Positions 1-49,424 of a DNA stretch of 49,424 nt are shown in pieces. This stretch comes from an uncultured Saprospiraceae bacterium (GTDB lineage Bacteria > Bacteroidota > Bacteroidia > Chitinophagales > Saprospiraceae): assembly GCA_937923485.1 (NCBI GenBank), contig CALDUE010000092.1, positions 1-49,424 of the forward strand. Direction: 5' to 3'. The position numbers were made by a program, and so were the translations under genes. Positions within the stretch are counted from its first letter, which is position 1. Each line of letters starts with the position of its first letter. The notes beneath the pieces were generated by a model. It ran no database searches. It had not been told where the DNA came from and worked only from the letters and a program-made list of their open reading frames with translations.

Positions 1-989
1 TGAAAGCCATCATCCCAGTAGCAGGAGCAGGTAAACGACTTCGCCCTTTTGCCTATACTCAGCCTAAGCCACTCATTCCAGTAGCAGGAAAGCCGATCTT
101 AAGTTATATCGTTGAACAGCTTCAAGAGCTCGGCGTAACGGAGTTCATTTTTGTTATTGGGTACTTGGGGGAGAAGATTCGCGATTTTGTTGAAGAGACC
201 TACCCAGAATTGAAGACCAAGTTCGTAGTCCAAGACGTGCGAAGAGGCTCGGGACACGCGGTTTGGTTAACAAAGCAGGCGGTTGGACGGACGAAGAAGA
301 TCGTCATAGTCTTCGGAGATACGGTCGTTGATGGAGGCGTGGAAGATATTTTCAATTGCAGCCACACGTGTATGGCGATCAAACCTGTCGATGATCCGCG
401 TCGCTTTGGTGTCGTTGAACTGAAAAAGGACGGGACCATAAAGGCGATGGTTGAAAAACCACGTATGCCGCGCAGCAACCAGGCACTTGTTGGATTTTAC
501 AAAATTGCCGACTTTCCATTGCTCTGTGAGACTTTGGGAAGGCTGTTAGAGCAAGATCATAAGGAAAGCGTCACCCTTACCGACGGCTTGATGACGATGC
601 TAGATGGCGGACATACGATGCATGCTGAACAAGTGCTTAGGTGGTATGATTGTGGGGACCCCAAGGTGCTTCTGAATACTAATCGCACATTCCTTACCAA
701 GCGGAAGTATGGCGAAAGTCAAGTGCCAGCTTTTGATAGGACGGTCATCATTCATCCTGTGGCCATTGGTAAAAACTGTACGATCAGCGATGCAGTCATC
801 GGACCGAATGTATCTATTGGAGACAACGCGGTTATTGAGAAGTCTATGGTGAGTGAAAGCATCGTTGGGAACAACACGATGCTCATTCAAGTTAATCTAT
901 CAGAGTCCGTCATCGGGAATGATACGGCACTCCACGGGAGACCGCAATCACTGAATATCGGTGACAATACAGAACTCGAGTTAGGTTAA
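1..989 (+). CDS. Sugar-phosphate nucleotidyltransferase with C-terminal beta-helix (start cut by window edge)
   Basis: This is a nucleoside-diphosphate-sugar pyrophosphorylase of the glucose-1-phosphate thymidylyl/uridylyltransferase type, which makes an activated sugar for envelope polysaccharide. The first base of its ATG lies just outside the window, because the sequence opens with TG followed by AAA GCC ATC. Full length would be about 329 residues. The N-terminus has the nucleotide-binding loop PVAGAGKRLRPF followed by QPKPLIPVAGKP, both typical of the family. From about residue 240 hexapeptide-like repeats (HPVAIGKN, SDAVIGPNVSIGDNAVIE, SVIGND) indicate a left-handed beta-helix. The exact sugar and nucleotide cannot be read from the sequence. 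The stop lies 48 bases before the ATG of the next gene, so co-transcription is possible. Confidence 0.85.
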   Translation, partial: KAIIPVAGAGKRLRPFAYTQPKPLIPVAGKPILSYIVEQLQELGVTEFIFVIGYLGEKIRDFVEETYPELKTKFVVQDVRRGSGHAVWLTKQAVGRTKKIVIVFGDTVVDGGVEDIFNCSHTCMAIKPVDDPRRFGVVELKKDGTIKAMVEKPRMPRSNQALVGFYKIADFPLLCETLGRLLEQDHKESVTLTDGLMTMLDGGHTMHAEQVLRWYDCGDPKVLLNTNRTFLTKRKYGESQVPAFDRTVIIHPVAIGKNCTISDAVIGPNVSIGDNAVIEKSMVSESIVGNNTMLIQVNLSESVIGNDTALHGRPQSLNIGDNTELELG

Positions 990-1010
990 GGTTTGTTTCG
1001 TGGTCAATTA

Positions 1011-1024
1011 GTTTTTGCGAAAGC
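1011..1024 (+). repeat. 14-mer copy, one mismatch (position 6 T)
   Basis: GTTTTTGCGAAAGC. It lies just upstream of the hydrolase ATG and 66 bases before an exact copy in the same orientation. Confidence 0.7.
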
Positions 1025-1037
1025 ACGTTGCCTTCAT

Positions 1038-1769
1038 ATGAGCAAGTCATTTCTACCTATCGCCATACTGTTTTTTGTTTTGGCGAAAGCTGCAATCTGT
1101 GTAGCTCAGGAAGACGCTCCCCTACGCTTATATCTCATTCCAGGAACAGGAGCAGACGAGCGACTTTTTCATGCCTTAGACTTGAGCAGTTTTGATACGG
1201 TGAACATCAATCTGCCCGTCCCACTCAAGAAAGAATCAATGCATGCTTATTCTTTGAGGATAGCGCATGATCAGATTGATACGACGCGACCTTTCGCTTT
1301 GCTTGGGGTTTCTTTAGGCGGAATGGTTGCCACAGAACTTGCGGACGAACTCAATCCTGAGGCTGTGATCATCATCGCTTCCGCTAAAACGGGTGATGAG
1401 ATCCCTCCAAGCTATCATCTCGCGCGGTATCTGCCCATTCATTATTTGGTCGGAGGGCGTACCATGCGTTGGTTCACCAAACAGGTTCAGCCAATATTCG
1501 AGCCGATGGAAGATGAGCAGCGCGACTTGTTTATCACGATGTTATATGAGAAGGATCCGGCGTTTTTGAAAGGGGCTGTGCGCTTGATGGTGAATTGGGA
1601 CCGCACGGAGGCACCAGAAGGAATCATTCATATTCATGGCGAGCTTGATCACACGGTACCCTATAAGCATACGGCCCCCACTCACAGTGTTGTGAATGCG
1701 GGCCATATGTTGACCTACAGTATGCCTGAGGTTGTGGAGGGGGTATTAGCGGATGCTACGAAACACTAA
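1038..1769 (+). CDS. Exported alpha/beta-hydrolase family protein
   Basis: This 243-residue protein has the alpha/beta-hydrolase pattern: a nucleophile elbow GVSLGG with Ser92, a late acidic residue in HGELDHTVPY and a C-terminal His in NAGHM. The first residues (MSKSFLPIAILFFVLAKA, then CVAQED) form a signal peptide, so it probably acts in the periplasm or on the surface. The frame is open from a TTG at 993, but the ATG at 1038 puts the hydrophobic segment at the N-terminus and is preferred. Two copies of the window's 14-mer sit here, one imperfect just upstream (1011) and one exact in the signal peptide (1077). The stop overlaps the stop of the convergent Fe-S gene by four bases. The substrate is unknown. 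Confidence 0.8.
   Translation: MSKSFLPIAILFFVLAKAAICVAQEDAPLRLYLIPGTGADERLFHALDLSSFDTVNINLPVPLKKESMHAYSLRIAHDQIDTTRPFALLGVSLGGMVATELADELNPEAVIIIASAKTGDEIPPSYHLARYLPIHYLVGGRTMRWFTKQVQPIFEPMEDEQRDLFITMLYEKDPAFLKGAVRLMVNWDRTEAPEGIIHIHGELDHTVPYKHTAPTHSVVNAGHMLTYSMPEVVEGVLADATKH
1077..1090 (+). repeat. 14-mer GTTTTGGCGAAAGC, exact
   Basis: Inside the hydrolase signal peptide, reading V-L-A-K-A. Confidence 0.9.
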
Positions 1770-3586
1770 AGAATCCCAACCGAATCCGCAGTGATATGAA
1801 TCGCACGCGTTTCATCGGCACGGAATTGATCTGTATCGTCACCGTTCTCGAGGCGAAGTACGCCGCGTGGGCAAACTGCTGAACAGACACCGCAACCAAC
1901 ACAACTAGAGCGGACGATATCCTGTCCACGCTGTGCGTAGTAGCGAACGTCAATACCCATCTCACAATAGGTGGAACAGTTACCACATGAGATGCACTGA
2001 CTGCCATTGGTTGTGATACGAAACTTAGACTTATAGCGCTGTACGAGACCGAGGTATGCAGCAAGCGGGCAACCGAAGCGGCACCACGTTCTGTTACCCA
2101 TCAAAGGATAGAATCCTGTACCAACAACTCCTGCGAAACCTGCTCCAATCAAAAAGCCGTACCACTTGCGAATGTCGTACGCGTTAAAAATCCAGATCTG
2201 TGCATTGCCTGTGAAGAAATGATAAAGTACAGCCGCCGTCATTACGATTGCCGCGACGAGCACACCGTGAATAATAAATCGTTCGTACTTCCAAGCACGC
2301 ATACTCTTGTCACTGAGCTGGCGATATGGATCACCCATAGTTTCGGCCAAGCCTCCACAACCACAAACCCAGGAACAATACCAGCGCTTACCATAGAAGT
2401 AAGTCAAAACAGGCACTCCAATCACAATTAGCGCTACTCCCCAACCTAGGAGGAAAATTCCGAAGGTTCCACTATCCAGCAACGAGTTAAGATTCCAGTC
2501 AAAGAAAAAGCTGTAATCAAGCGGCCAGATAAGCTTAAGGTCTACACTCGGACCACCAAGTCTAGACATCAGGTCTGGAATGAGAAACGCAAAGCCCGTT
2601 TGGAAAAACATCACGGAGCCTGTACGAACTAGCTGATACTTGTTATGCTGATATTTTGACCACATACGTACACCCATCACGAGGACGATCACTGTATATA
2701 GCGTACCGTATACAGACCATTGACTGGCAGAACCGCCACTCAAAAATTCTGTAAGGGGATTGACCATGATGACCCATGGAGTAATTAGATAAGGTGACCA
2801 GTACAACAAAAGATAGAAGACGATCAGGTAGGTCCCACCCAAAATTCCGAGCGTTCCTGAAGCCATGTCTGGCGAGGCACTTCGCTGTGGAGTGTGCTTG
2901 GCACTATTCTGCACAATGAAGATGAGAACCGATATCAAGATGGCTACACCTGCCGTTACTGCCGGCCAAACCCACTGTCCAGACATATACGTCACACCAT
3001 AGGCAAGTACACCAATAATGGTGAACCCTAAGAATACGCTTCTCCAAGTTAGTGTAAGCCCACGGGTAAGAGGTGAGTGGTAAATGTGATCGTTCTTGAT
3101 ACCTGGATCAGCTGAGAACTTAGGGAGGATGTAGAGCAAACCTCCTAAAATCCCTAGCCCAAACGTTAGCCCAAACCACAACCAAGGATTCGCAGTAATC
3201 GGTCCCGTGCTTGAAGAGCGAATAAGAGGAAAGAGTTGATCTTTAAAGTAACCGTCTCCTAATTTGAAGTCCCATTCCCCAAGGTCATCAGGAGCTCCAG
3301 ACTTTTCAAACGTTGCCTCAAGTGCTCCTTGGGCTTTTGTGAAAACTTCGTGATAAGCACTTTTGACTTCAAATGGACTACCAAACGTCTGTCCTGTAAA
3401 GTCAAGATCCTTTGCAGCCTTAGCAATTGCTGCTTTTTGATACTTGTTTGAGCCTTCCGGCAAAACATCAGACGTAATGGTATAGCTCTCAAGACCAAGC
3501 ATGGCTGTAAAGAGCAACAAGGCAAGACAAAACAAACCTAAGCCTAGCCATTGCAGACCTGTTTTATGAACTGATTTATTAGACAC
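1766..3586 (-). CDS. Polytopic membrane Fe-S protein (NapH/NosR/CcoG-like ferredoxin domain)
   Basis: This 606-residue protein has many hydrophobic segments. One lies at the N-terminus, a large soluble loop follows (about residues 35-125), and further helices run to about residue 490. The C-terminal third carries membrane-proximal Cys motifs (CSWVCGCGG, CRFGCP) and then two 4Fe-4S ferredoxin motifs, CISCGNCSTYC and CVGCGVCSAVCPRG. This arrangement is known in NapH, NosR and CcoG relatives, which move electrons between quinone or flavin and periplasmic or cytoplasmic partners. The GTG start overlaps the end of the upstream FAD oxidoreductase gene by eight bases, so the two are translationally coupled and probably form one electron-transfer unit. 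The extra N-terminal half is not part of NapH or CcoG as I know them. The physiological acceptor is unknown. Confidence 0.85.
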   Translation of the reverse strand: MSNKSVHKTGLQWLGLGLFCLALLLFTAMLGLESYTITSDVLPEGSNKYQKAAIAKAAKDLDFTGQTFGSPFEVKSAYHEVFTKAQGALEATFEKSGAPDDLGEWDFKLGDGYFKDQLFPLIRSSSTGPITANPWLWFGLTFGLGILGGLLYILPKFSADPGIKNDHIYHSPLTRGLTLTWRSVFLGFTIIGVLAYGVTYMSGQWVWPAVTAGVAILISVLIFIVQNSAKHTPQRSASPDMASGTLGILGGTYLIVFYLLLYWSPYLITPWVIMVNPLTEFLSGGSASQWSVYGTLYTVIVLVMGVRMWSKYQHNKYQLVRTGSVMFFQTGFAFLIPDLMSRLGGPSVDLKLIWPLDYSFFFDWNLNSLLDSGTFGIFLLGWGVALIVIGVPVLTYFYGKRWYCSWVCGCGGLAETMGDPYRQLSDKSMRAWKYERFIIHGVLVAAIVMTAAVLYHFFTGNAQIWIFNAYDIRKWYGFLIGAGFAGVVGTGFYPLMGNRTWCRFGCPLAAYLGLVQRYKSKFRITTNGSQCISCGNCSTYCEMGIDVRYYAQRGQDIVRSSCVGCGVCSAVCPRGVLRLENGDDTDQFRADETRAIHITADSVGIL

Positions 3587-5975: not shown

Positions 5976-6383
5976 TTAAACTGGATACCCTACTGCGTTC
6001 CGAGGCGTCTCCCAAAGTTTTAGCGAAAGCTCAAGACCTGCAGGTAGTCTAGGAAGCAAGTAATCGTAGATCGCGGCTGCAATGTGCTCTGCACTAGGCA
6101 TGCGGTCTTGAAAGTCTGGCACATCTAAGTTGAGGTTCTTGTGATCAAACCGATCTTCAACTTCTTCTTTGATAATCTGCTTGAGTACGCCCAAATCCAT
6201 TACATAGCCCGTATCAGGATTCACATTCCCTTTCACACAAACTTCCAGTTCGTAATTGTGCCCGTGAAAATTGGCGTTGTTGCAAGGTCCGAACACTTCT
6301 CTATTTCGCTCATCCGACCACTTCGCATTATGCAGACGGTGGGCGGCGTTGAAATGGGCTCGACGGTAGACTGCTGCACGCAT
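5976..6383 (-). CDS. queD: 6-carboxytetrahydropterin synthase / 6-pyruvoyltetrahydropterin synthase family
   Basis: This 135-residue T-fold enzyme most likely converts dihydroneopterin triphosphate to 6-carboxytetrahydropterin in queuosine biosynthesis. The zinc ligands are His15 in FNAAHRL and His40 and His42 in FHGHNYEL. The catalytic Cys34 lies in FGPCNNANFHG. DHKNLNLD and PSAEHIAAAIYDYL are the usual family blocks, and the length is typical. No other queuosine gene is nearby. A 6-pyruvoyltetrahydropterin synthase role is the alternative, but that eukaryotic-type activity is uncommon in this phylum. One near-copy of the 14-mer repeat (6017) lies in the C-terminal coding part, reading as KLW in the protein. 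The gene is divergent from holB. Confidence 0.88.
   Translation of the reverse strand: MRAAVYRRAHFNAAHRLHNAKWSDERNREVFGPCNNANFHGHNYELEVCVKGNVNPDTGYVMDLGVLKQIIKEEVEDRFDHKNLNLDVPDFQDRMPSAEHIAAAIYDYLLPRLPAGLELSLKLWETPRNAVGYPV
6017..6030 (+). repeat. 14-mer copy, one mismatch (position 6 A)
   Basis: GTTTTAGCGAAAGC, within queD on the non-coding strand of that gene. Confidence 0.7.
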
Positions 6384-6525: not shown

Positions 6526-7680
6526 TTGTCGTTTAATACACTACTTACACCTAGTTCAATACCTGCCCAGTGGACGGCTGCGGTAGATGATGAACGTGTG
6601 CCTCAAGCAGTCTTGCTTGCAGGAGCGACGGGAGCTGAGATCCTACCGCTTGCGCTAAAACTTATTGAGTACCTCCAGTGCGAGCAGCGAAATTCAGGTA
6701 CAAAAGAAACGGCTGGCGAAAGTTGTGGAACCTGCGACAGTTGCAGGAGCCACCGAAAACTAACGCACCCAGATGTCCACTTCACCTTTCCTGTGGTGGG
6801 GACAGGGGTGACCAGTGCTAAAATGCTCCCTCAATGGCGGGAGGAAATTCTAGCGAATCCATACCTCGACCACAGTGCTTGGCTTCGGGTCCAGACCAAA
6901 GACAACAAACAAGGAAACATCAACCGTGATGAGGTCATGCGCATCTTGCATGATGTCTCGCTACAGCGCTTCACCGATGGCTATAAAGTCGTCATGATTT
7001 GGGGTGCTGAATACCTTGGCGACGAGTCGAACCGTCTCCTCAAAATCATTGAGGAACCTCCAGCCAAGACACTTATACTTCTGCTCACAACACGCTTTGA
7101 GCGGATTTTACCAACCATCACCAGCCGCTGCCGCATATATCGCTTACCTCCTCCTCAAACGGAAAGGATATCGAACTTGCTCGAGCAGCGCGGTGTAGCG
7201 CACGATCGTGCACTCCAACTTGCTTATGCCGCAGATGGAGACATTGGTCGTGCAATTGCTAGTATAGCTTACCAGGCTGACGAGCAAACTGTTGATCTGG
7301 CTTCTTGGCTCAGAGAGTGCTTCTCTGGAAAGGGAGCTCCGATCACTCAGTCGGCGGCCAAATTGGCTGCCCTCACCCGCGAAGAACAGAAGCATTTTCT
7401 GCTCAACGCACTGCGCTTCGTGCGCGAACTTGGCGTTGCATGCGCTGAGAATCCTCAGCCACTTCGACTCGCCCCAAGCGATGCGCAGGTGGCAACCAAG
7501 CTGGCCGCGCTAGTATCCTGGCCCCAGCTGACGGCGCTCGCCGACGAACTCAATCGTCTGCTCGCAGCCGTCGAACGTAACGCGAACGGGAAAATCGCCT
7601 TTGCGGCGACCTCGATTCGCATCCATCATATTCTCGCCCGGCAGCGTTCGGACTCACATCCCATGCGTCGTGCGAGCTAA
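6526..7680 (+). CDS. holB: DNA polymerase III delta-prime subunit
   Basis: This 384-residue clamp-loader subunit helps load the sliding clamp during replication. Residues 1-200 show an AAA+ fold with a degenerate P-loop (LLAGATGAEILPLAL, no GKT), a zinc-binding Cys cluster CGTCDSC, then GNINRDEVMRI, KVVMIWGAEYL, NRLLKIIEEPP and TTRFERILPTITSRCR, all standard for delta-prime. The loss of the P-loop lysine is expected because delta-prime does not hydrolyse ATP. The start is a TTG at 6526, and no ATG or GTG is available between it and the upstream in-frame stop at 6460. The next gene is ricT, 11 bases after the stop, an order also known in Firmicutes (holB-yaaT). Confidence 0.9.
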   Translation: MSFNTLLTPSSIPAQWTAAVDDERVPQAVLLAGATGAEILPLALKLIEYLQCEQRNSGTKETAGESCGTCDSCRSHRKLTHPDVHFTFPVVGTGVTSAKMLPQWREEILANPYLDHSAWLRVQTKDNKQGNINRDEVMRILHDVSLQRFTDGYKVVMIWGAEYLGDESNRLLKIIEEPPAKTLILLLTTRFERILPTITSRCRIYRLPPPQTERISNLLEQRGVAHDRALQLAYAADGDIGRAIASIAYQADEQTVDLASWLRECFSGKGAPITQSAAKLAALTREEQKHFLLNALRFVRELGVACAENPQPLRLAPSDAQVATKLAALVSWPQLTALADELNRLLAAVERNANGKIAFAATSIRIHHILARQRSDSHPMRRAS

Positions 7681-7691: not shown

Positions 7692-9119
7692 ATGGCTTGC
7701 GCATCTTGCGGAACCAAAAATGCCGACGGCAGCCCATCTGGTTGCGGATCCAAAGGACACTGTTCCTCTGGCGGCTGCAACCGAATGAGCACCTACGACT
7801 GGCTTACCATCCAGGGCGTTCGTGACGTTGCCGAACAGAATTACGTAGAGGTTTCATTCAAACACGGAACCCGTAAAGACTTTTACTACTGCCCTCCTGA
7901 AATTGGAGCTAGTACGAGTGACGTTGTTGTCGTGCAAACCGATAAAGGGTTTGACACAGGATACATTACGCTCTCAGGTGAACTCGTGCACGCGCAAATG
8001 GCTAAACGCGACGTCAAAGCGAGTCTCATCAAGTATGATGTAATTCGCAAAGCGCACGACCGAGACCTTGAGCGACTTGATGAGGCACGCTTACTCGAAA
8101 AGCAAACCCTCGTTCGTGCTCGTGTACTTGCCTACGCTACGGAATCTCCAATGAAACTTAGCGACGTTGAGTATCAGGGTGACCTCACAAAAGCGACGTT
8201 CTTCTACACTTCAGAAACAAGAATCGACTTTCGGGAACTTATCAAATCCCTCGCAAGAGAGTTCCGCGTTCGCGTAGAAATGCGCCAAATAGGCGCTAGA
8301 CAAGAAGCCGGCCGTCTCGGTGGCATTGGTTCTTGTGGGCGAGAGCTGTGCTGCTCAACTTGGTTGACGGACTTCAAGAGTGTCAATACATCAGCAGCAC
8401 GTTATCAGGGCCTCGCACTCAATCAGACGAAGTTATCTGGACAATGCGGCAGACTAAAGTGCTGCCTCAACTTTGAGCTCGATACTTACCTCGATGCCTT
8501 ATCAGATTTCCCAAAAAAGGCAGACAAGATCAAATTGCCTAACGGTAAAGCGGTTTTGGTGAAAACAGATGTCTTCAAACGTCTGATGACCTATCAAATA
8601 ATGGAAGGTCGCAAGCGCGGACCGTATGTTACCATGACCGTCGAGCAGGTGCACGAAGTCCTCAAAAACCCTGAGGCCGACGTACACACGTTCATCGCCA
8701 TTGAGAGTGAACGCCAAACACAATTGGCCGAAGAAACTGCGGATGAACATGACTATGGTGATGTTACCGATGTAGTTGACATTCCGCTCGAGAAGCGTAA
8801 CCGCAAGAAGAAAGGCGCTCGTAAAAAAGGTGGCAATCGATCAGGCGGTCAACGCGACAATGCTAAGCAAGACAGAGCAAGCGGAGGTTCGAGTAAATCT
8901 CGAAATCGCTCTCGCAGTCGCAATAAGCCAGCTTCCGCCAAAACAGGTGGCGATCCGGCAAAAGCGACAAAATCAAGCAGAAGACCTAAAAGCCCCAAAA
9001 GCAATCAAGGAGGCGAGTCAAAACCTGGGGATAAGCCAACTGGCAATCGCCAGTCTCGCAACCGAAATAGAAGAAAACCTCGAGGCCCGAAACCAGGAGG
9101 CGGGGATAGCGGTAAATAG
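7692..9119 (+). CDS. ricT: PSP1/RicT-family protein with long basic tail
   Basis: This 475-residue protein of the PSP1 (YaaT/RicT) family starts with a Cys-rich segment (CASCG, CGSKGHCSSGGC). The core runs to about residue 350 and includes RIDFRELIKSLAREFRVRVEMRQIG, GGIGSCGRELCCS and SGQCGRLKCCLNFE. In Bacillus, RicT with RicA and RicF forms an Fe-S complex that affects RNase Y and mRNA processing. Whether that applies here is inference. Residues about 365-475 are low complexity and rich in Lys, Arg, Ser, Gly and Asn, suggesting RNA contact. The tail is so repetitive that a long out-of-frame ORF also stays open through it. It directly follows holB. gldH, often beside this family in Bacteroidota, is instead at 30 kb. 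Confidence 0.87.
   Translation: MACASCGTKNADGSPSGCGSKGHCSSGGCNRMSTYDWLTIQGVRDVAEQNYVEVSFKHGTRKDFYYCPPEIGASTSDVVVVQTDKGFDTGYITLSGELVHAQMAKRDVKASLIKYDVIRKAHDRDLERLDEARLLEKQTLVRARVLAYATESPMKLSDVEYQGDLTKATFFYTSETRIDFRELIKSLAREFRVRVEMRQIGARQEAGRLGGIGSCGRELCCSTWLTDFKSVNTSAARYQGLALNQTKLSGQCGRLKCCLNFELDTYLDALSDFPKKADKIKLPNGKAVLVKTDVFKRLMTYQIMEGRKRGPYVTMTVEQVHEVLKNPEADVHTFIAIESERQTQLAEETADEHDYGDVTDVVDIPLEKRNRKKKGARKKGGNRSGGQRDNAKQDRASGGSSKSRNRSRSRNKPASAKTGGDPAKATKSSRRPKSPKSNQGGESKPGDKPTGNRQSRNRNRRKPRGPKPGGGDSGK
8931..8944 (-). repeat. 14-mer copy, one mismatch (position 10)
   Basis: Plus strand GCTTCCGCCAAAAC, in the basic tail of ricT, reading A-S-A-K-T. Confidence 0.65.
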
Positions 9120-12168: not shown

Positions 12169-13026
12169 ATGGCTAAACCATTCCTCGACGCAGAATTACT
12201 CCAACCGTTCATTCGCCGCAGTCTCTCAGAAGATATCGGACCTGGAGACCATACTAGTCTAGCAACGATACCTGAAGGAAAAATTGGGCGCGCCCGCTTG
12301 CTCGTGAAAGATCATGGTGTCTTATGTGGAATGCCAGTTGCTAAGGCCGTATTTGACTACTTAGACCCTAGCTGTACGATTGAAGAGCTGCTCTCTGATG
12401 GAGACGAAATCTCCCCGGGACAAGAAGCATTTTACATTGAAGGCCCCATTCGTACAATCCTTGGTGGCGAAAGACTCGTCCTCAATACCATGCAGCGGCT
12501 ATCAGGAATAGCGAACATGAGTCGTGTTTTCGCGAAAGCTGTGAAAGGTACCGGAGCCAAAGTGCTCGATACAAGAAAAACTACCCCGCAGCTCCGTTTC
12601 TTAGAGAAATATGCAGTGGTTGTTGGAGGATCTTACAATTATCGAGATGGACTCTATGATCGCATTATGATTAAAGACAACCACGTAGATGGCGCAGGTG
12701 GCATGCGTGAAGCAATCGAAAGCGTACACAAATACCTGCGAGCAAACGACCTTGATCTAGAAATGACGGTGGAAGTGCGTAATCTCCAAGAACTCGACAC
12801 GGTGTTGAGCATCGGCAATGTGAACCGCATCATGCTCGATAATTTCGAACTCTCAGACCTCCAGACCGCTGTTGATACAATCGGTAATCGCCATGAAAGT
12901 GAGGCGAGTGGTGGAGTTAATCTCGACACCATCCGACCAATTGCAGAAACAGGAGTTGACTTTATAAGTGTAGGCGCGTTGACGCACTCAGCTCAGAGCA
13001 TTGACTTGAGCTTGAAGATGATGTAG
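12169..13026 (+). CDS. nadC: Nicotinate-nucleotide pyrophosphorylase (carboxylating)
   Basis: This 285-residue enzyme converts quinolinate and PRPP to nicotinate mononucleotide in NAD synthesis. The diagnostic blocks are EDIGPGDHTS near the N-terminus, LNTMQRLSGIA, LDTRKTTPQLRFLEKYAV, GGSYNYRDGLYDRIMIKDNH and the C-terminal GVDFISVGALTHS. Length is normal. It follows mqnC by 59 bases, but a promoter-like TACATTCG four bases before the ATG suggests it also has its own, possibly leaderless, transcript. A one-mismatch copy of the 14-mer repeat (12526) is embedded in the coding sequence. nadA and nadB are not in the window. Confidence 0.95.
   Translation: MAKPFLDAELLQPFIRRSLSEDIGPGDHTSLATIPEGKIGRARLLVKDHGVLCGMPVAKAVFDYLDPSCTIEELLSDGDEISPGQEAFYIEGPIRTILGGERLVLNTMQRLSGIANMSRVFAKAVKGTGAKVLDTRKTTPQLRFLEKYAVVVGGSYNYRDGLYDRIMIKDNHVDGAGGMREAIESVHKYLRANDLDLEMTVEVRNLQELDTVLSIGNVNRIMLDNFELSDLQTAVDTIGNRHESEASGGVNLDTIRPIAETGVDFISVGALTHSAQSIDLSLKMM
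12526..12539 (+). repeat. 14-mer copy, one mismatch (position 6 C)
   Basis: GTTTTCGCGAAAGC, within nadC, reading V-F-A-K-A. Confidence 0.7.
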
Positions 13027-13222: not shown

Positions 13223-13249
13223 CCAATTGGAGTTGGCATAAGCCAACGA

Positions 13250-14685: not shown

Positions 14686-15558
14686 ATGTTAGGAGAACAT
14701 ACCGTTTTACACGGTAGTGCAGCCTTTGCGGTGCCTTTACGGCGGTATTCTGCGCGTGTTGCCTTGCAACGTTTAACATCGGATGCTCATCAACTCCCGA
14801 TCGAAAAGGGTATCCACGCAAGTTTTGATTTTGGCAAGTGGCTAGCTTTCGCCAAAACGTCAGAAGTACTCGCTGGTAAGCTAGACTTCGAGCGATGGGA
14901 GCAAGAATCGCAAGGCCTGGGCGTGTATGCAGACATTCCCATTGGGTACGGTTTGGGATCTAGCGGGGCTATCACTGCCGAAGCATACCGCAGGTATCTG
15001 CTAGAGGAGGTGCCATCTCTTCCGCTTCTGAGGAAGCAGCTTGCCGCTTTGGAGAGTTTCTTCCACGGCGAAAGCTCAGGTCTCGACCCTTTGGTAAGTT
15101 TTTTAGACCAAGCCATTTACATTCATCCTTCTGGAGAAATTGAAGCGGTGACCATGGCAGAGACCTTTCCAATATTTGACTCAAAAGGAGCTTGGTTTCT
15201 GATCGACTCAGGCCAACCACGCGCTGGTAAGGATGCGATAGCACGTTTTGGCGAAAGCTGTAAAGACAATCGTTGGGTAAAAGAAGTACTCAAGCCAATG
15301 AATGTGCTAGTTGATGCACTCGCTCAAGGATTCAAGCTTGAGCATGTAGACGGGCTTTCGCCAAAACTTAGAGCGCTAAGCGAGCTTCAACTTGAAGCAT
15401 TGAAGTTTTTGATTCCTACCTCTATTGAGACAAAATGGAGTCAATGGCTCAGCAAGGATGTGGCTTACCTAAAGCTCTGCGGTGCAGGTGGCGGAGGCTT
15501 CTTTTTGGGATATGCACCAGATAAATCAAGCATTCGTGAAGAAGTAATCTGGTTATAG
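14686..15558 (+). CDS. GHMP-family kinase (mevalonate kinase-like)
   Basis: At 290 residues from the ATG, this protein has the GHMP kinase fold: motif 1 GEHTVLHGSAAFAVPL, ATP loop GYGLGSSGAITAEAY and motif 3 KLCGAGGGGFFLGY. It fits mevalonate kinase-like proteins best, which would place it in isoprenoid synthesis, but other GHMP substrates remain possible. Family proteins usually have a Lys a few residues before GEH. Here that Lys (in PAKLLMLGEH) is encoded upstream of the first ATG. The frame is open back to 14635 with a CTG at 14650, so translation may begin at a non-AUG codon. Three exact copies of the 14-mer repeat (14845, 15245, 15354) lie inside this one gene. Confidence 0.82.
   Translation: MLGEHTVLHGSAAFAVPLRRYSARVALQRLTSDAHQLPIEKGIHASFDFGKWLAFAKTSEVLAGKLDFERWEQESQGLGVYADIPIGYGLGSSGAITAEAYRRYLLEEVPSLPLLRKQLAALESFFHGESSGLDPLVSFLDQAIYIHPSGEIEAVTMAETFPIFDSKGAWFLIDSGQPRAGKDAIARFGESCKDNRWVKEVLKPMNVLVDALAQGFKLEHVDGLSPKLRALSELQLEALKFLIPTSIETKWSQWLSKDVAYLKLCGAGGGGFFLGYAPDKSSIREEVIWL
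14845..14858 (-). repeat. 14-mer, exact (first of three in the GHMP kinase gene)
   Basis: Plus strand GCTTTCGCCAAAAC, reading A-F-A-K-T in the kinase. Confidence 0.9.
15245..15258 (+). repeat. 14-mer, exact (second in the GHMP kinase gene)
   Basis: GTTTTGGCGAAAGC reading R-F-G-E-S, a different frame from the first copy. Confidence 0.9.
15354..15367 (-). repeat. 14-mer, exact (third in the GHMP kinase gene)
   Basis: Plus strand GCTTTCGCCAAAAC reading L-S-P-K-L. It faces the second copy as an inverted pair 109 bases apart. Confidence 0.9.
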
Positions 15559-32739: not shown

Positions 32740-32770
32740 TTGTCAGGTCGCTTTCGTCAAAACCTGACAA
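32740..32770. promoter_or_regulatory. Perfect 9-bp inverted repeat upstream of grpE, enclosing a 14-mer copy
   Basis: TTGTCAGGT (32740-32748) and ACCTGACAA (32762-32770) are exact reverse complements around 13 bases. The spacer is most of a one-mismatch 14-mer (32750-32763). Position and symmetry suggest an operator for the chaperone operon. It is not CIRCE (TTAGCACTC/GAGTGCTAA). No T-run follows on either strand. Confidence 0.5.
32750..32763 (-). repeat. 14-mer copy, one mismatch (position 7), inside a stem-loop
   Basis: Plus strand GCTTTCGTCAAAAC, lying in the loop of the TTGTCAGGT inverted repeat upstream of grpE. Confidence 0.7.
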
Positions 32771-33709: not shown

Positions 33710-33988
33710 TCACTCTACAATGACTCCTCGCCAAAAGGCAACGCGGCCTTTAATCTTATCTGCAATGGGCTTTGTTTCAGGATAGTACCAAGCCGCATCC
33801 TTATTCTGCTCGCCTTCAATCTCAACATTGAGGTAGCTGGCAACCCCCTTCCAAGGGCAATTTGTGTGTAGTTCGCTTTCGCTAAAACGTTCAGAAATTA
33901 GTGATTCTCTTGGGAAGTAGTGATTTCCTTCGACAACGATAGTATCGTCTGATTCGGCGAGTAGGACGCCTTTATAGGTTGCACGCAT
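33710..33988 (-). CDS. DUF427 domain protein
   Basis: This 92-residue protein has the DUF427 pattern: TYKGVLLAESDDTIVVEGNHYFPRESL, HTNCPWKGVASYLNV, DAAWYYPETKPIADKIKGRVAFWRGV. It is small and cytoplasmic with no known enzymatic role. A promoter-like TACTTTTA lies four bases before the ATG. A one-mismatch 14-mer (33875) is inside the coding sequence and reads FSES in the protein. Confidence 0.87.
   Translation of the reverse strand: MRATYKGVLLAESDDTIVVEGNHYFPRESLISERFSESELHTNCPWKGVASYLNVEIEGEQNKDAAWYYPETKPIADKIKGRVAFWRGVIVE
33875..33888 (-). repeat. 14-mer copy, one mismatch (position 6 A)
   Basis: Plus strand GCTTTCGCTAAAAC, in the DUF427 gene. Confidence 0.7.
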
Positions 33989-34144: not shown

Positions 34145-34158
34145 GCTTTCGCCAAAAC
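34145..34158 (-). repeat. 14-mer, exact, intergenic
   Basis: Plus strand GCTTTCGCCAAAAC in the 451-bp gap upstream of the lipoprotein gene. Confidence 0.9.
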
Positions 34159-41100: not shown

Positions 41101-42594
41101 TGGTAAGTCGTTTGAGAACTCACCTACTTTGAAGACTCGTCCATTGTACGTATACTCATACGCCACAGCGAGTACTTGATCTGGACGAACGTTCACGTTG
41201 ATACTCACGAAACCAAGCTCAGGGTGGTAGCTGAATTCTGATTCTGTGAGTAGACGAGCACGGACGCGCTCAAAATCACGCGATTGCTGCATATCGAAGA
41301 ACGGTCCTTGGAGGCGTCCTACAATGTTTTGGCGAAAGCGATTTGAAGGATTACTTACAAGATTATCAAAAAGTGCGTTCGCTCCGTTATCGGGAAGGAT
41401 TTTGCCATCAAGGCTCATCCCGCTGTTTAGGTTGATTTCGTTTGATCGGTTAGGATTGGTTATTTGATCAGGAAAGCCCTCACCTAAATCGGCAAGAGCT
41501 ACAATCTCACGAACACCTTCTGTCTGGTCTCGATCATTGGTGAGCCAAACCTCAATACGATTGATCTTAAACTGGGAGATGATCGTAGGGAGATTTTGTA
41601 AGGACTCCTCGAAGGATTCAAGATTAAAGTGGGATAGCAGGAAGTGACGATTCTCGTCATACTGATCTGCCCGAACCTCAAACTCTTGGAACTGAGCACC
41701 ACCTTGAATTTCGATCTCATCACGCTCCGTCTTTTGCTGACTTGCGAGGGCCGTAACTTTCAGTCGACCAAACTTGAGATCTGCTCGTACACCCAGAAGG
41801 CCTTGAGATCCTTGTATAAGTGATGAACGAAGCGGAAGGCTTACGTTGCCTGCTTCGATGTTTTGCAGAATTTCATCTTCTCCAAACTCGGCAGCATTGT
41901 AGGTAACCTTGATAAGCTGACGGTCGAAACTGAAGTTTGCGCTGTTGTTGTATGATGAGCTCAACTGAAGCTTTGACCCGATAGAGCCCGTAACGTTCAT
42001 TTGAATGTTCATCTTGAAGTCGAAACCACCTGTTCGCTGCTGACGTGCAATCAAGGCTGGGTTCTCGGTCGTTCGGAAATCGACCCCGAAAGTGAGGTCG
42101 ATGTTGCCTCGTGTATCAATATTGACATCAGAACCACCAAAGAGGCGATCAACTAGACTGTTCTCGACATCGATTGCTTCAATCGGATCCTCTACATTTC
42201 CAAGACCTACTCCGTCTGCACTTACCCTTCCCTGAAGCTGATCGAAGTAACGCTGCTGTGACTGACGATCACGGAACTGCTGATACTCATCGAAAGTGAG
42301 ATAGGTGGGAGATCTGAAGTATGATCCACCGATGCGCTCTGTGACGATGTATCGGTTAGAAACAGGATCGTATTCTACTTCCTGCGTAACCGAAGCTGGG
42401 TCACGTAGATCTATGCGGTTCGATGGAGGATCTGTGATAAAGTCACCACTCCGATCCTTTATAGGTGGAAGCGTATCTGAACTAATCTCAAAGAGATGTG
42501 GTTCAATATCGTGTAGAGATATAGATGTCGCTGAGGCAGTAGTGCCGGCGGCTATAAATAGTGCTACAGTGAGAAGTATAAACGTTGACTTCAT
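35188..42594 (-). CDS. sprA: Cell-surface translocon protein SprA (type IX secretion)
   Basis: This 2468-residue protein matches SprA, the giant outer-membrane barrel that forms the T9SS translocon and is needed for gliding. The signal peptide is MKSTFILLTVALFIAAG, with cleavage near SATS. SprA-type repeated regions (ANLKF-like strands such as GSYKSSVSSEISLGAFNIPRG and VYVDDFEGS, IDLNDEGGTVYVDDFEGSA) follow, and the C-terminus ends in a barrel strand (QAGLTVRFKLN). Residues about 1905-1985 are a highly charged Lys/Asp/Gly insert (RGGRGRDPRGR, KDGKDADGKDAKKKGDKK) not expected in a barrel. The exact 14-mer (41326) lies in the gene. ruvA is upstream, a common SprA neighbour. Confidence 0.93.
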   Translation of the reverse strand: MKSTFILLTVALFIAAGTTASATSISLHDIEPHLFEISSDTLPPIKDRSGDFITDPPSNRIDLRDPASVTQEVEYDPVSNRYIVTERIGGSYFRSPTYLTFDEYQQFRDRQSQQRYFDQLQGRVSADGVGLGNVEDPIEAIDVENSLVDRLFGGSDVNIDTRGNIDLTFGVDFRTTENPALIARQQRTGGFDFKMNIQMNVTGSIGSKLQLSSSYNNSANFSFDRQLIKVTYNAAEFGEDEILQNIEAGNVSLPLRSSLIQGSQGLLGVRADLKFGRLKVTALASQQKTERDEIEIQGGAQFQEFEVRADQYDENRHFLLSHFNLESFEESLQNLPTIISQFKINRIEVWLTNDRDQTEGVREIVALADLGEGFPDQITNPNRSNEINLNSGMSLDGKILPDNGANALFDNLVSNPSNRFRQNIVGRLQGPFFDMQQSRDFERVRARLLTESEFSYHPELGFVSINVNVRPDQVLAVAYEYTYNGRVFKVGEFSNDLPVGDTTNLNVIYTRLLKSTTPRVDVPNWALMMKNFYNIGAYQVNQEDFLLNITYEDPGEGEKRFLPESNIANVPLIRVLDVDQLNVQLDPQPDGIFDFVPGLTIYPRNGRIMFPVLEPFGQKLEDEIDDPADERRFVYNILYDSTVTRAREYPEFNRYIIKGSYKSSVSSEISLGAFNIPRGSVRVTAAGQILREGQDYEIDYNIGRIKILNDAFLTSGVPVRVSFEDNAVFGLQNRSMVGLRADYEFNKKLSLGGTYLHLFERPFTQKVNVGDDPINNRIFGVDLVYGDDAPWLTRFVDKIPGLSTKEQSTINFSAEAAFLKPGHSRAIDLNDEGGTVYVDDFEGSASGFDLKTPLNAWTLASVPQNNPLFPEARPTLVSREDSLALNANRALLNWYRIDNVGRTGTPTVYDVQVQPQDLFPGRQLNQFTNNALFTFDLTYYPQERGPYNFDVPNGGYSTSAGLTDDGRLEDPSSRFGGIMRELQTNDFQAANIEFLEFIVLSPFLDARNSSEFEGDLYIEFGNVSEDIIRDSRLFFENGLPAGNGDNGNRPTDLTTYGRVPRMAPVTPAFDTEQANRLEQDIGFDGLNNDGEATVFSEWLNQVLPDITNPGAQQEIMADPANDDFVSFQNSTATTTVERYKRFNGFEGNSPIASDNGIAVGFSTLPDTEDLNGDNTLSETESYFQYKIPFRQGNAPGEVDLEAARYITQETRFPGPNGEEMIFYRFKIPLDEYDSKVGSIQDFRSIRYIRMYMKGFERPVTFRFARFDLVRNQWRRYLRTTALRDPGPGITTEPDVFFDIDAVNIEENSGRQPFGYVLPNGIVREQQLNTVGNLQQNEQSQVITVCGLEDRDARGIYKIVNLDMRVYETLRMFVHAEEFDIDGTDVAPELLENEDARLFIRLGSDFLDNYYEYELPLSFTRASQITPNLSADELSDVIWPPVNNLEINLQDLIDLKIERNGTNRPLGQEFTIDDGRFPGGGRTLSIIGNPNLGLVKGVMIGIRNPAGGAKEICTQVWVNELRLNGLDERGGSAGLARLDMQLADFGSISASGSFTSIGWGSLDQKLVERARGSEFVYDVVGSFEMGKFLPDDSGVRVPMTVVYSNNVQRPEFDPYDLDINLKDKIAAAPANTRDSIRSQAQDKTVQREINFTNVRKERTKVDGAPLPWDISNFSVSYVYNETDRTTPLIELDETVNYFGSLDYNYALKSKPITPFKKLIKNNKYLDLVKELNFNPLPSRFAFSTTMDRILQSTRYRFSGTDPALNTFFNRNWTWDRDYNLNWDFSKGLRFQFNATNRAVIDELPTFDDDENPFPEDVRKEQVWTALRNFGRNKAYQHNFNVNYTLPTKQIPFLDFMNITAQYTGTYNWNAASQDLTFLGNVISNGQQRQVRGDLNFETLYRKSKYLQKIENGNKAASKRGGRGRDPRGRALGNNATKDNAASDDPKNADSKDGKDADGKDAKKKGDKKKKKRERDVSKIERIAIRPFLLIRRANVTFSEEFSTTLPGYTEQTEYLGLSQGFKDPGFDFVGGLQPDIRNSFGGPRDQDYLFQNQRFFTDDIRLNQQVFQTFSQNLAAQMTIEPFKDFRIDLDLNKRSAENHSEFFKDTLGTGNNFARLVPVDIGSYTISYGAVNTLFTNQSDLFQNFEDNRVIVSQRLNSTLANPGQPHADTAFASRGFLEGFGPNQQEVQLASFLAAYTDQDANNVRLDVLNTLPKVNWRLTYNGLARLKGMDEIFTSFSLTHSYKSSLTINSFNTNLLATSRTSTNPATQSFYSKLVIPDLVISEQFSPLIGIDARLKNEMSVRLSVSKTRNLGMSFVDNTLAERNSDEFSLGYGYVIKNVDLLQYFGVKAKKTTSKRKQEEEAQNAGQPGRTPRRGGPKNGVGNDLDIQIDIRYSDDVTLNRQLDQIGDQPTRGATSFTLSPSAEYEINEQLSLRLFLDYRRQTPKVSTSFPTTNTQAGLTVRFKLN
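41326..41339 (+). repeat. 14-mer, exact (in sprA)
   Basis: On the non-coding strand of sprA; the protein reads R-F-R-Q-N. Confidence 0.9.
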
Positions 42595-43604: not shown

Positions 43605-44861
43605 ATGCGCATACTTCTCATCGGTTCTGGCGGTCGCGAGCACGCCATTGCTTGGAAACTTCAGCAAAGTCTTCGACTCACTAAGCTTTTTATCGCTCCA
43701 GGAAATGCAGGAACCGCACAGATCGGGACCAATGTACCTGTCGATGTAGCGAATCATGATGAAGTGGCAAGTTTTTGCGCAAGCGAGAAGATCGACATGG
43801 TCGTCGTGGGACCTGAAGTCCCATTAGTTGCTGGGCTTTGTGATGACCTTTCGGCAAAACTTCCTTCACTAAAGCTCGTCGGACCGGGTGCTGCTGGGGC
43901 GCAACTCGAAGGTTCCAAGGCCTTCAGCAAGGCGTTTATGGCCGAGTTTGGAATCCCTACCGCAGCGTACCAAACCTTCACCGCTGGGGATGTTGCCGCA
44001 GCTAAGGAGTTTTTGCGAAAGCTGGAACCTCCATACGTCTTAAAGGCCGATGGTCTCGCCGCAGGAAAAGGAGTTGTCATCCCACATACACTAGCAGAAG
44101 CAGAGCAGGAACTCGACGAGATGCTTAGCGGGAAATTTGGAGAAGCAAGCGCCAAAGTGGTCATCGAAGAATTTTTAGACGGTCCAGAATTCAGCGTATT
44201 CGTGCTTACCGATGGCGACGATTATCAACTTTTGCCCGTCGCCCGCGATTACAAGCGTGCAGGAGAAGGTGATACTGGCCCTAACACGGGAGGAATGGGA
44301 GCCGTGAGCCCTGTCCCTTTTGCCGATAAACACATGATGGCCAAAGTGCGTGAACGTATAGTAGAGCCTACGCTTCACGGTCTACGCACACGAGGAATTC
44401 CCTATACAGGAATTATCTTCCTCGGCCTAATAAACGTTAAAGATGAGCCTTACGTCATCGAGTACAACTGTCGACTAGGAGATCCTGAAACAGAAGTGAT
44501 CATGCCTCGCATTACCAGCGATTTGCTAAGCTTATTTGATAGCATGTTCGATGGTACGCTTTCGCAAAACCAGTTAAGTATCGACAGCCGGGCAGCTGCC
44601 ACCGTCGTCATGGCCAGCGGAGGATATCCTTCGAGTTATGAGAAAGGGAAAACCATTTCAGGACTTGACGAGCTAAACGATTGCATCCCTTTCCTTGCCG
44701 GGGTAAAGGAGCAGGAAGGCAGGCTCGTAACGAATGGTGGAAGGGTACTTATGCTTACAAGTTATGGGCTAACCTATATGGAAGCGGCGGAAATGAGCAA
44801 GCGATCGGCTGCATCCGTGCATTTTGAGGGCGGGTTTTTCCGAAAGGACATCGGTAAATAG
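43605..44861 (+). CDS. purD: Phosphoribosylamine-glycine ligase
   Basis: This 418-residue ATP-grasp enzyme makes glycinamide ribonucleotide in purine synthesis. Blocks are MRILLIGSGGREHAIAWKL, APGNAGTAQIG, VVVGPEVPLVAGLCDDL, YVLKADGLAAGKGVVIP, DYKRAGEGDTGPNTGGMGAVSP and YVIEYNCRLGDPETEVIMPRI, in normal order and length. A complete TAnnTTTG lies four bases before the ATG. Two imperfect 14-mers (44009 and, weaker, 43771) lie in the coding sequence. It converges on the pseudouridine synthase gene. Confidence 0.97.
   Translation: MRILLIGSGGREHAIAWKLQQSLRLTKLFIAPGNAGTAQIGTNVPVDVANHDEVASFCASEKIDMVVVGPEVPLVAGLCDDLSAKLPSLKLVGPGAAGAQLEGSKAFSKAFMAEFGIPTAAYQTFTAGDVAAAKEFLRKLEPPYVLKADGLAAGKGVVIPHTLAEAEQELDEMLSGKFGEASAKVVIEEFLDGPEFSVFVLTDGDDYQLLPVARDYKRAGEGDTGPNTGGMGAVSPVPFADKHMMAKVRERIVEPTLHGLRTRGIPYTGIIFLGLINVKDEPYVIEYNCRLGDPETEVIMPRITSDLLSLFDSMFDGTLSQNQLSIDSRAAATVVMASGGYPSSYEKGKTISGLDELNDCIPFLAGVKEQEGRLVTNGGRVLMLTSYGLTYMEAAEMSKRSAASVHFEGGFFRKDIGK
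44009..44022 (+). repeat. 14-mer copy, one mismatch (position 6 T)
   Basis: GTTTTTGCGAAAGC, in purD, reading F-L-R-K-L. Confidence 0.7.
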
Positions 44862-47396: not shown

Positions 47397-47438
47397 TAAC
47401 TCAAATCTCAAGGAACTTTTCCTTGTAAAATTACCCGA

Positions 47439-48812: not shown

Positions 48813-48826
48813 GCTTTCGCCAAAAC
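48813..48826 (-). repeat. 14-mer, exact, beside the ahcY terminator
   Basis: Plus strand GCTTTCGCCAAAAC. Flanking bases extend the hairpin to TTTGGC/GCCAAA around TTTC (48810-48826), directly before the terminator. Confidence 0.9.
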
Positions 48827-48830
48827 TTTT

Positions 48831-48866
48831 AGCCCGTCTGTTCGAAAGAGCAGACGGGCTATTTTA
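48831..48866 (+). terminator. Terminator after ahcY
   Basis: AGCCCGTCTG (48831-48840) pairs with CAGACGGGCT (48851-48860), extended inward by TTC against GAG with one G-U pair, and is followed by ATTTTATTT. The exact 14-mer (48813-48826) lies four bases upstream. Confidence 0.82.
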
Positions 48867-49000
48867 TTTGTGACTTTCGGCTGACGTCTTATTGAAAATT
48901 AACCGAAAGATGTTTAAAGCCTATTTATATTTTTTCTTTTCTTTAACATTTCAATTATAGTCCCATCTTCTATCTCATTCAAGCCTTGTAAAACTTACAA

Positions 49001-49424
49001 TTGAAACAGTTTACACGACAGCTTATACTCTTCGGAACGCTTCTCTTAATTTCCTTAGAGATACTTGCTCAAGCACCTCCAATCTGTGGTCCGAACCCGG
49101 TCATGACTCCTTTTTGCAATCAAGCTTGCATCATTTGCGACATCGATGGATTTTCTGGAGTCAATGGATCACCAACTCCAAACTGGGATGAGCCTGCTGG
49201 ATTTTGTGCGCCCACGCCGCACAACCTTCGCTGGATAGGATTCATCGCAGGATCAGTGGACCTCACACTATAAATTTTCGTGGATAACTGCACTATTTTT
49301 CCTGTGAATAGTAGAGGGCTACAAATGGGAGTATATGAAGTGATTGATTGTAATGTGAATGCCGCAGTAGCTGTCACAAATTGTGATCCGCGGGTAAGAC
49401 CTGGTGAGACAGCTGTCCTTAGCA
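49001..49424 (+). pseudogene. Secreted-protein gene interrupted by an in-frame TAA (runs off window)
   Basis: A TTG-started frame encodes a signal peptide (MKQFTRQLILFGTLLLISLEILAQ) and the Cys-rich segment PPICGPNPVMTPFCNQACIICDIDGFSG. It reaches GSVDLTL and meets TAA at 49271-49273. The same frame stays open to the window end and continues with protein-like sequence (IFVDNCTIFPVNSRGLQMG, then VYEVIDCNVNAAVAVTNC). CAA in place of TAA would restore it, a single base change. This resembles N-terminal regions of large Saprospiria secreted proteins. It is either a nonsense mutation, a sequencing error, or a recently truncated gene. The remainder lies outside the window. Confidence 0.7.

What the first reader, a model, noticed from the sequence alone, without database searches (positions are those of the whole stretch)
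1..49424. A 14-base sequence, GTTTTGGCGAAAGC, is scattered through the window at far above chance
Seen: nine exact copies at 1077, 14845, 15245, 15354, 22045, 27907, 34145, 41326 and 48813, about one per 5.5 kb, plus at least eight copies with one mismatch. A random 14-mer is expected about 0.0004 times here counting both strands. Orientation is mixed (5 plus, 4 minus). Copies lie between genes and inside genes in at least five different reading registers (VLAKA, RFGES, AFAKT, RFRQN, LSPKL), so selection acts on DNA and not on a peptide. In five of eight variants the changed base is position 6, giving a core GTTTTNGCGAAAGC. The last eight bases are GCGAAAGC, known as an extraordinarily stable DNA mini-hairpin. 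Inference: a genome-wide signal such as a DNA uptake sequence, a nucleoid or segregation site, or a protein-binding repeat. Such uptake sequences are established in Pasteurellaceae and Neisseriaceae but I know of none described in this phylum.
Basis: partly seen in the sequence, partly recalled or inferred. Interest (0 to 1): 0.92.

Follow-up and report, generated by a model that had tools for sequence, protein, structure and literature searches.

The report
Genome-wide DNA hairpin signal in Saprospiraceae
These bacteria carry well over a thousand copies of a tiny DNA hairpin, mostly inside genes and on both strands, whose paired bases change together; it looks like a self-recognition mark read on single-stranded DNA, a kind of genome signal I could not find described.

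Summary
The 14-mer occurs 508 times in the 3.31 Mb genome (253+/255-) and 547 times in its sister species. It is one form of a hairpin, GTTTT-N-[w C G N A A G w'], where w and w' may be any complementary pair: 280 of 285 G000 sites pair (G-C, C-G, A-T, T-A). Five other genera carry the same hairpin behind ATTT or TTTT leaders. In nine whole genomes the G-C and C-G forms number 10,089, against 47 with G.G. Sites in genes are equally sense and antisense, so the signal is DNA, not RNA; covariation implies that a folded single strand is read. Between species at 77% identity 28 of 31 sites are kept; 6.5% of control blocks match. In this genus each strand carries a site about every 4 kb, more evenly than chance; a second genus did not show this. 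I judge it a self-DNA signal on single-stranded DNA, most likely in natural transformation (inferred), with a Chi-like role as main rival. The linear uptake-word reading is only partly right. No reader protein was found, and my capped paper searches found no such system.

The parts
1011..1024 (+). hairpin site GTTTTTGCGAAAGC
   Evidence: kept in G001 with changes at 6 and 10
1077..1090 (+). hairpin site, exact 14-mer
   Evidence: kept in G001 with a change at 6
1377..1390 (-). hairpin site GTTTTAGCGGAAGC
   Evidence: kept in G001
3453..3466 (-). hairpin site GTTTTGCCGGAAGG (C-G outer pair)
   Evidence: kept in G001 as GTTTTGCCGAAAGG
6017..6030 (+). hairpin site GTTTTAGCGAAAGC
   Evidence: not kept in G001
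6648..6661 (-). hairpin site GTTTTAGCGCAAGC
8931..8944 (-). hairpin site GTTTTGGCGGAAGC
   Evidence: kept in G001
12526..12539 (+). hairpin site GTTTTCGCGAAAGC
   Evidence: kept in G001
14845..14858 (-). hairpin site, exact 14-mer
15245..15258 (+). hairpin site, exact 14-mer
   Evidence: kept in G001
15354..15367 (-). hairpin site, exact 14-mer
22024..22037 (-). hairpin site found by the structural pattern (more than 2 mismatches from the 14-mer)
   Evidence: not among the matches
22045..22058 (+). hairpin site, exact 14-mer
27907..27920 (+). hairpin site, exact 14-mer
33875..33888 (-). hairpin site GTTTTAGCGAAAGC
34145..34158 (-). hairpin site, exact 14-mer
41326..41339 (+). hairpin site, exact 14-mer
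43771..43784 (+). hairpin site GTTTTTGCGCAAGC
43847..43860 (-). hairpin site GTTTTGCCGAAAGG (C-G outer pair)
44009..44022 (+). hairpin site GTTTTTGCGAAAGC
44834..44847 (+). hairpin site found by the structural pattern (more than 2 mismatches from the 14-mer)
   Evidence: not among the matches
48813..48826 (-). hairpin site, exact 14-mer
8553..8566 (+). probable variant site GTTTTGGTGAAAAC (inner C-G replaced by T-A)
26893..26906 (-). probable variant site GTTTTGGCGACAGC (loop variant)
44558..44571 (-). probable variant site GGTTTTGCGAAAGC (no spacer base)
32750..32763 (-). unpaired near-copy GTTTTGACGAAAGC (A7, C14), an exception to the pairing rule
   Evidence: not counted as a site

Best explanation
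Each site is a miniature hairpin that forms when its strand is single: a T-rich leader (GTTTT in this genus; ATTT or TTTT in relatives), usually one base, then a stem of 2-3 base pairs closed by C-G around a G-N-A-A loop. A protein reads the leader, the loop and the fact that the stem is paired, but not which outer pair it is. Because one strand only is read, each strand needs its own sites; in this genus each has about one per 4 kb. I propose that the hairpin marks a strand as self when DNA is single-stranded, most likely after one strand of an incoming fragment has passed ComEC in natural transformation; a marked strand is protected, or loaded with DprA/RecA, and recombined. Strands that carry a site are recombined more often, so sites would spread and be restored by the kind of molecular drive thought to maintain uptake sequences (recalled); a change of reader would then change the leader across the genome. 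Shown: covariation, both-strand intragenic placement, per-site conservation, leader dialects, and strand-wise spacing in this genus. Inferred: recognition as a folded single strand. Conjectured: transformation as the setting, and the reader protein.
For: Covariation: position 7 x 14 is Watson-Crick in 196 of 198 (G000) and 128 of 129 (G001), and in 84 of 87 in further G000 contigs. Outer-pair pairing exceeds all 2000 column shuffles in 8 of 8 sets. Whole genomes, summed over the nine with strong signal among the 26 counted: 5,920 G-C form and 4,169 C-G form against 47 with G.G. DNA, not RNA: sense 79 and antisense 88 of 196 in G000, 50 and 48 of 128 in G001; other genera similar, e.g. 38 and 50 of 101 in G027. 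Conservation: 28 of 31 G000 sites are sites in G001 at 77.1% identity (28 of 32 in reverse); changes within kept sites are at positions 6 and 10 only; 6.5% of 8,861 control blocks are identical at the same 12 positions; the 3 and 4 sites not kept align without gaps. Spacing: successive sites are on opposite strands in 231 of 364 cases (p 3e-7); same-strand gap CV 0.786 against 0.953 for shuffled labels, 0 of 1000 as low; none of 144 seven-mers of similar count reaches any of the three measures. Dialects. ComEC in 22 of 23 genomes, G000 included. Riemerella columbina, in the same phylum, prefers its own DNA in transformation (PMC7965970, passages seen).
Against: No direct link to transformation. 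ComEC is also present in the two genera without the hairpin (G007, G103). Strand-wise even spacing is absent in G029, the one other genus tested at length (adjacent same 38, opposite 45; same-strand CV 1.16). In the window's genus the share of same-strand gaps above 10 kb is not clearly reduced (4.6% against 5.8% for shuffled labels, p 0.09). The third base pair is weak there (107 of 276, shuffled mean 87.4, maximum 105; G001 44 of 122, within the shuffles). Three of four folded oligonucleotides with the GTTTT leader fold no better than many of their shuffles (27, 29 and 80 of 200 at least as good). Site positions are not shared across genera (2 of 28). Among the 28 kept sites no outer-pair switch was seen, so compensatory change is seen across sites but not within one.
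Confidence: 0.45

Rival explanations
1. Chi-like recombination signal: the hairpin, on the strand unwound at a double-strand break, changes the resecting nuclease-helicase or loads RecA; both orientations are needed so that breaks can be repaired from both ends.
For: Strand-wise spacing of about 4 kb fits a directional, single-strand-read signal. PDDEXK_1 nucleases of the AddAB/RecBCD kind are found in 22 of 23 genomes.
Against: E. coli Chi is polar (adjacent same strand 21, opposite 10 in 150 kb), whereas here strands balance (imbalance 0.23 of expected in 20 kb windows). G000 itself had no PF12705 hit, though its assembly is 85% complete. The hairpin-free genomes G007 and G103 have such nucleases. 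In known enzymes Chi is read as an unfolded strand (recalled).
Confidence: 0.2
2. Single-strand initiation or restart signal: the hairpin is a priming or primosome-loading site for exposed single strands, as hairpins at single-strand origins of small phages are (recalled).
For: A single-strand-read hairpin on both strands at intervals.
Against: A lagging-strand role predicts strand bias by replichore; plus/minus counts by contig are 21/21, 10/10, 12/8, 2/2, 12/8, 5/3, 20/18, 9/8, 3/2, 11/11 in the first G000 sample. Presence limited to some genera (absent in the samples of G007 and G103) is odd for a replication need.
Confidence: 0.12
3. REP-like element recognised by a Y1 (RAYT/TnpA-REP) transposase: leader tetranucleotide plus hairpin, read as single-stranded DNA.
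For: Same layout of a guide sequence 5' of a hairpin, and a Y1 subclass found mostly in Bacteroidetes with atypical structures (PMC6006769, passages seen); REPs inside genes, and CGTC repeats in Bacteroidetes, are reported (PMC3733652, passages seen); Y1_Tnp genes occur in 20 of 28 genomes, G000 included.
Against: G029 and G155 (100% and 99% complete) have the hairpin but no Y1_Tnp hit, while the hairpin-free G007 has two. Sites not kept align without gaps, so they arise or vanish by substitution. 167 of 196 lie in genes. Stems are 2-3 bp against 7-20 for REPs (PMC6006769).
Confidence: 0.08
4. An RNA element (tetraloop hairpin in transcripts) or a terminator.
For: C(GNAA)G is also a stable RNA tetraloop (recalled).
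Against: Sense and antisense placement are about equal (79:88; 50:48); no Rfam match in the window at the gathering score; stem too short for a terminator.
Confidence: 0.04

Closest known systems
DNA uptake sequences (DUS of Neisseriaceae, USS of Pasteurellaceae)
   Same: Short signal, over a thousand copies, in genes and in both orientations, lineage-specific dialects, kept at the DNA level.
   Different: DUS/USS are fixed words; here arms covary as base pairs, the outer stem pair is free, and in this genus spacing is strand-wise. Uptake bias has not been shown here.
REP sequences with RAYT / TnpA-REP (Y1 HUH) transposases
   Same: Guide sequence 5' of a hairpin, read as single-stranded DNA, many copies.
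   Different: 2-3 bp stem, mostly inside genes, changed by substitution, no Y1 gene found in the two g29 genomes.
Chi sites (RecBCD/AddAB)
   Same: Strand-directional signal every few kb, read on a single strand.
   Different: Chi is an unstructured short word with strand bias; here hairpin structure and local strand balance.
HIP1 and other highly iterated palindromes
   Same: Genome-wide short word in one lineage.
   Different: HIP1 is a fixed palindrome (recalled); here the sequence is polar and the stem pair varies.

Membership tests
DUS/USS uptake sequence | High copy number genome-wide, in and between genes, both orientations | tested here: met
   508 exact copies 253+/255-; 167 of 196 sites in genes, sense about equal to antisense
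DUS/USS uptake sequence | Fixed linear word | tested here: not met
   Outer stem pair is G-C, C-G, A-T or T-A, 196 of 198 paired
DUS/USS uptake sequence | Raises uptake or transformation by DNA that carries it | not testable with these tools
   needs a competent culture
DUS/USS uptake sequence | Host has ComEC | tested here: met
   (also met in the hairpin-free genomes, so uninformative)
REP/RAYT | Host encodes a Y1_Tnp transposase | tested here: not met
   none in G029 and G155, which carry the hairpin; but present in G000, with 5 matches
REP/RAYT | GTAG/GTGG guide and 7-20 nt basal stem, largely extragenic | tested here: not met
   leader GTTTT/ATTT/TTTT, 2-3 bp stem, mostly intragenic; definition from passages of PMC6006769
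Chi | Strand bias along the chromosome | tested here: not met
   strand imbalance 82 against 324 expected; E. coli Chi 21 same, 10 opposite
Chi | Alters RecBCD/AddAB | not testable with these tools
   needs enzymes
KOPS / segregation site | Polar towards the terminus | tested here: inconclusive
   strands more equal per contig than chance (largest departures 4/1 and 5/2 in short contigs), which speaks against it; but replichores are unknown in this draft genome
RNA regulatory hairpin | Sense-strand bias | tested here: not met
   no Rfam match in the window

The most novel reading that the evidence does not exclude
A chromosome-wide code written in DNA secondary structure: over a thousand mini-hairpins per genome, each readable only on a folded single strand and, in this genus, placed evenly on each strand, label single-stranded DNA as self. 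Different genera use different leader dialects, so a receptor for folded single-stranded DNA must have co-evolved with its sites.
Probability: 0.6. Interest if true: 0.95.

Novelty: categorically new. Interest (0 to 1): 0.88.

Why it matters
The genome-wide signals I know of (uptake sequences, Chi, KOPS, HIP1) are fixed words, and the hairpin repeats I know of (REPs) are thought to be mobile and are mostly extragenic. An intragenic signal, changed by substitution, whose base pairs covary would be a self mark read on single-stranded DNA. It could also bear on how Bacteroidota, in which a screen found several transformation proteins without known relatives (PMC8459023, passages seen), tell self DNA from foreign. 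The paired-swap test makes it directly testable with synthetic DNA.

Tried and rejected
RAYT/IS200 origin: disfavoured because no Y1_Tnp was found in G029 and G155. RNA element: rejected by sense/antisense balance and no Rfam hit in the window. Mobile insertion: rejected, the 3 and 4 alleles without a site align without gaps. Amino-acid repeat: rejected, sites in all three frames of both orientations. Chance or composition: rejected by permuted motifs, backwards controls and 144 control seven-mers.

Led nowhere: ComEC and PDDEXK_1 presence do not separate hairpin-bearing from hairpin-free genomes. Viral contigs: the scan stopped at its limit with 120 stretches; the 80 listed each hold one copy, so it shows no phage rich in sites and no more. 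Genus g148 (family f24, same class) has a surplus of TTTNGCGAAAGC (47-100 in eight of the ten of its genomes that I counted, 6 and 9 in the other two) but at most 15 of the C-G form, so I do not count it as the same hairpin system; 80 kb of one of them gave 8 TTT-led paired hairpins against 1.5 expected, but only 8 of 19 paired with the ends left free. Shared positions across genera: 2 of 28, at 52-65% identity where alignment is poor. Strand-wise spacing was not reproduced in G029; smaller samples of G027, G155, G161, G181 and G104 gave adjacent same/opposite 42/54, 20/22, 9/17, 9/11 and 7/16, which lean the same way as the window's genus but were not tested further. The G293 sample of 38.5 kb held no TTT-led hairpin although its whole genome has a weak signal.

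Paper searches, all in the held open-access library and with capped listings, in which I saw no description of such a signal: (searches returned no paper).
Full report
OBSERVATION. In the window's genome (3.31 Mb in 216 contigs, 85% complete) the 14-mer occurs 508 times, 253 forward and 255 reverse, with none for the pattern read backwards. The other genome of the genus (G001) has 547; the other 58 genomes of that search have 0 to 11 each. The family is probably Saprospiraceae: 5 of the 80 listed named records that hold the 14-mer are labelled so, and one of them (L077, 8 kb) has 7 TTT-led paired hairpins, five with the GTTTT leader. That identification rests on labels, not on a tree.

THE REAL MOTIF. 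In 412,525 bases of G000, 52 of 58 one-mismatch copies differ at position 6 or 10 (35 of 39 in 251,132 bases of G001). Frequent further forms, GTTTTGCCGAAAGG and GTTTTGACGAAAGT, showed that positions 7 and 14 change together. With both positions left free, the pairs are G-C 140, C-G 35, A-T 19, T-A 2 and 2 unpaired in G000; G-C 100, C-G 24, A-T 4 and 1 unpaired in G001. Contigs added later gave 84 paired of 87. The next pair, 8-13, is nearly always C-G (196 of 206 in G000, with 4 T-A and 2 T-G), and the loop is G-N-A-A. So the motif is GTTTT, one free base, then a hairpin wCG-N-AAGw'. Thirteen further G000 copies lack the free base. Seven oligonucleotides made from these forms fold as DNA with -1.8 to -5.6 kcal/mol and a scrambled one does not; but three of the four with the GTTTT leader fold no better than 27, 29 and 80 of 200 shuffles, so predicted energy adds little for this genus and the covariation carries the argument. 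The exceptional stability of such DNA mini-hairpins is recalled from the literature, not looked up.

RELATIVES. In a sample of the family (398 genomes) GTTTTNGCGNAAGC is abundant only in G000 (1,128) and G001 (1,217); genomes of several other genera have 20-97. Their sequence shows the same hairpin behind other leaders: mostly ATTT in G161 and G104, mixed ATTT and TTTT in G155 and G029, TTTT in G181, and TTTT before ATTT in G027 (55 and 27 of 101). The pairing holds there: outer pair 46 of 46 in G155, 90 of 106 in G029, 101 of 122 in G027, 31 of 36 in G161, 25 of 28 in G181, 27 of 34 in G104, above all of 2000 column shuffles in each. In G155 a third pair also forms in 46 of 46 if G.T is counted; in the window's own genus that third pair is weak. 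Whole-genome counts of TTTN-GCGAAAGC, TTTN-CCGAAAGG and the mismatched TTTN-GCGAAAGG in 26 chosen genomes read: G000 789/179/1, G001 870/207/7, G027 421/440/6, G029 212/357/4, G155 763/1030/2, G061 592/315/11, G161 953/601/4, G181 724/308/7, G104 596/732/5; weaker in G086 96/31/6, G031 127/69/4, G092 147/79/10, G293 142/64/1; absent in G007 3/4/4 and G103 1/6/3. Of the other 11 genomes (family f24), nine have the first form in surplus (42-100) but all have at most 15 of the second. Only the G.G mismatch was counted genome-wide, not C.C.

DNA, NOT RNA; STRAND-POLAR. With genes predicted by a simple script, 79 sites are sense and 88 antisense of 196 in G000 (27 intergenic, 2 at gene ends), and 50 and 48 of 128 in G001 (26 and 4), in all three frames. 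The other genera give sense/antisense 38/50, 20/16, 13/15, 9/9 and 13/13. A transcript signal would be one-sided. A duplex-binding protein does not make two positions covary. What remains is a folded single DNA strand (inference).

CONSERVATION. G000 and G001 were aligned over 67,232 bases at 77.1% identity: 28 of 31 G000 sites are sites in G001 and 28 of 32 in reverse; away from alignment ends 25 of 27 and 25 of 29. Within kept sites only positions 6 and 10 changed. Among 8,861 control blocks 6.5% are identical at the same 12 positions. All seven sites present in one species only align without gaps. So each position is held by selection or drive, and sites come and go by substitution. Across genera positions are not shared (2 of 28), although alignment there is poor.

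SPACING. Successive sites tend to be on opposite strands: 118 of 186 in the first G000 sample, 73 of 114 in G001, 40 of 64 in further G000 contigs, together 231 of 364 (p 3e-7). Strand counts per contig are far more equal than chance (sum of squares 82 against 324 expected, p 2e-4; 32 against 84, p 0.012, in the further contigs). Each strand by itself is evenly spaced, with mean same-strand gaps of 4.0 and 3.8 kb: the gap CV is 0.786 against 0.953 when strand labels are shuffled, 0 of 1000 as low; short same-strand gaps are fewer, while gaps above 10 kb are not clearly fewer (p 0.09). None of 144 seven-mers of like abundance reaches any of three measures. The result was not reproduced in G029, where sites are sparser and the site definition is looser. 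It therefore holds for one genus, in two species sampled mostly at different places.

MECHANISM. A signal read on one folded strand and needed on each strand points to a process in which either strand may be the one presented single. Import of one strand in natural transformation is the best candidate I know: ComEC is there, the dialect pattern resembles uptake-sequence dialects (recalled), and transformable members of the phylum exist, one of which prefers its own DNA (PMC7965970, passages seen) while another uses several proteins without known relatives (PMC8459023, passages seen). But ComEC is equally present in hairpin-free genomes, no reader protein was found, and a Chi-like role in break repair explains strand-wise spacing about as well; against it stand the lack of polarity (E. 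coli Chi: 21 same, 10 opposite) and the hairpin itself. I put 0.45 on transformation, 0.2 on Chi-like, 0.12 on priming, 0.08 on a Y1-type enzyme and 0.04 on RNA; the rest is for something I have not thought of.

NOVELTY. Ten searches of the held library, with capped listings, showed me no such signal. The nearest kinds fail on a tested feature: uptake sequences (fixed linear word), REPs (transposase in every host, long stem, extragenic), Chi (polarity), RNA hairpins (sense bias); KOPS is disfavoured but not settled, since replichores are unknown. Papers seen only in passages: PMC7965970, PMC8459023, PMC3733652, PMC6006769; PMC2346458 was seen in its first part of three; other papers in search listings only.

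Noticed in passing
window 35188-42594; L392 9-13608: Long stretches with few or no sites coincide with giant ORFs (2468 aa in the window, which holds one site; 1743 and 2718 aa in L392, none). They may be surface proteins; their domains were not searched.
   Followed up: partly
genomes of g148 and g179 (family f24), e.g. G789: TTTNGCGAAAGC is in surplus (42-100 against 6-15 backwards controls in nine of 11 genomes counted) but the C-G form is at most 15: a separate, sequence-fixed signal or a coding effect. Several named Flavobacterium records hold the exact 14-mer.
   Followed up: partly
G272 (genus g27): Only 5 copies of GTTTTNGCGNAAGC where four congeners have 48-97: possible recent loss of the system, or a misplaced genome; useful for gene-content comparison.
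   Followed up: no
window about 13184-13228: A stretch of about 40 bases with 86-89% matches at five places in G001: a short dispersed repeat, unexplained.
   Followed up: no
G086 sample (L171, L256-L261): About 40 copies of a repeat ending ...AATAAGGATTGAAAC, which looks like a CRISPR array.
   Followed up: no
G031:C3:197337-197674: Three exact 14-mers spaced 162 bases apart on one strand, probably in a tandem repeat.
   Followed up: no
window 19777-21024 and 6526-7680: Genes for CinA (competence/damage-inducible protein) and a DNA polymerase III delta-subunit-like protein lie in the window; no special site pattern was looked for around them.
   Followed up: no
L047 (record labelled Cytophagaceae bacterium SAT51): Four TTT-led paired hairpins with mixed leaders in 8 kb: possibly another dialect.
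   Followed up: no
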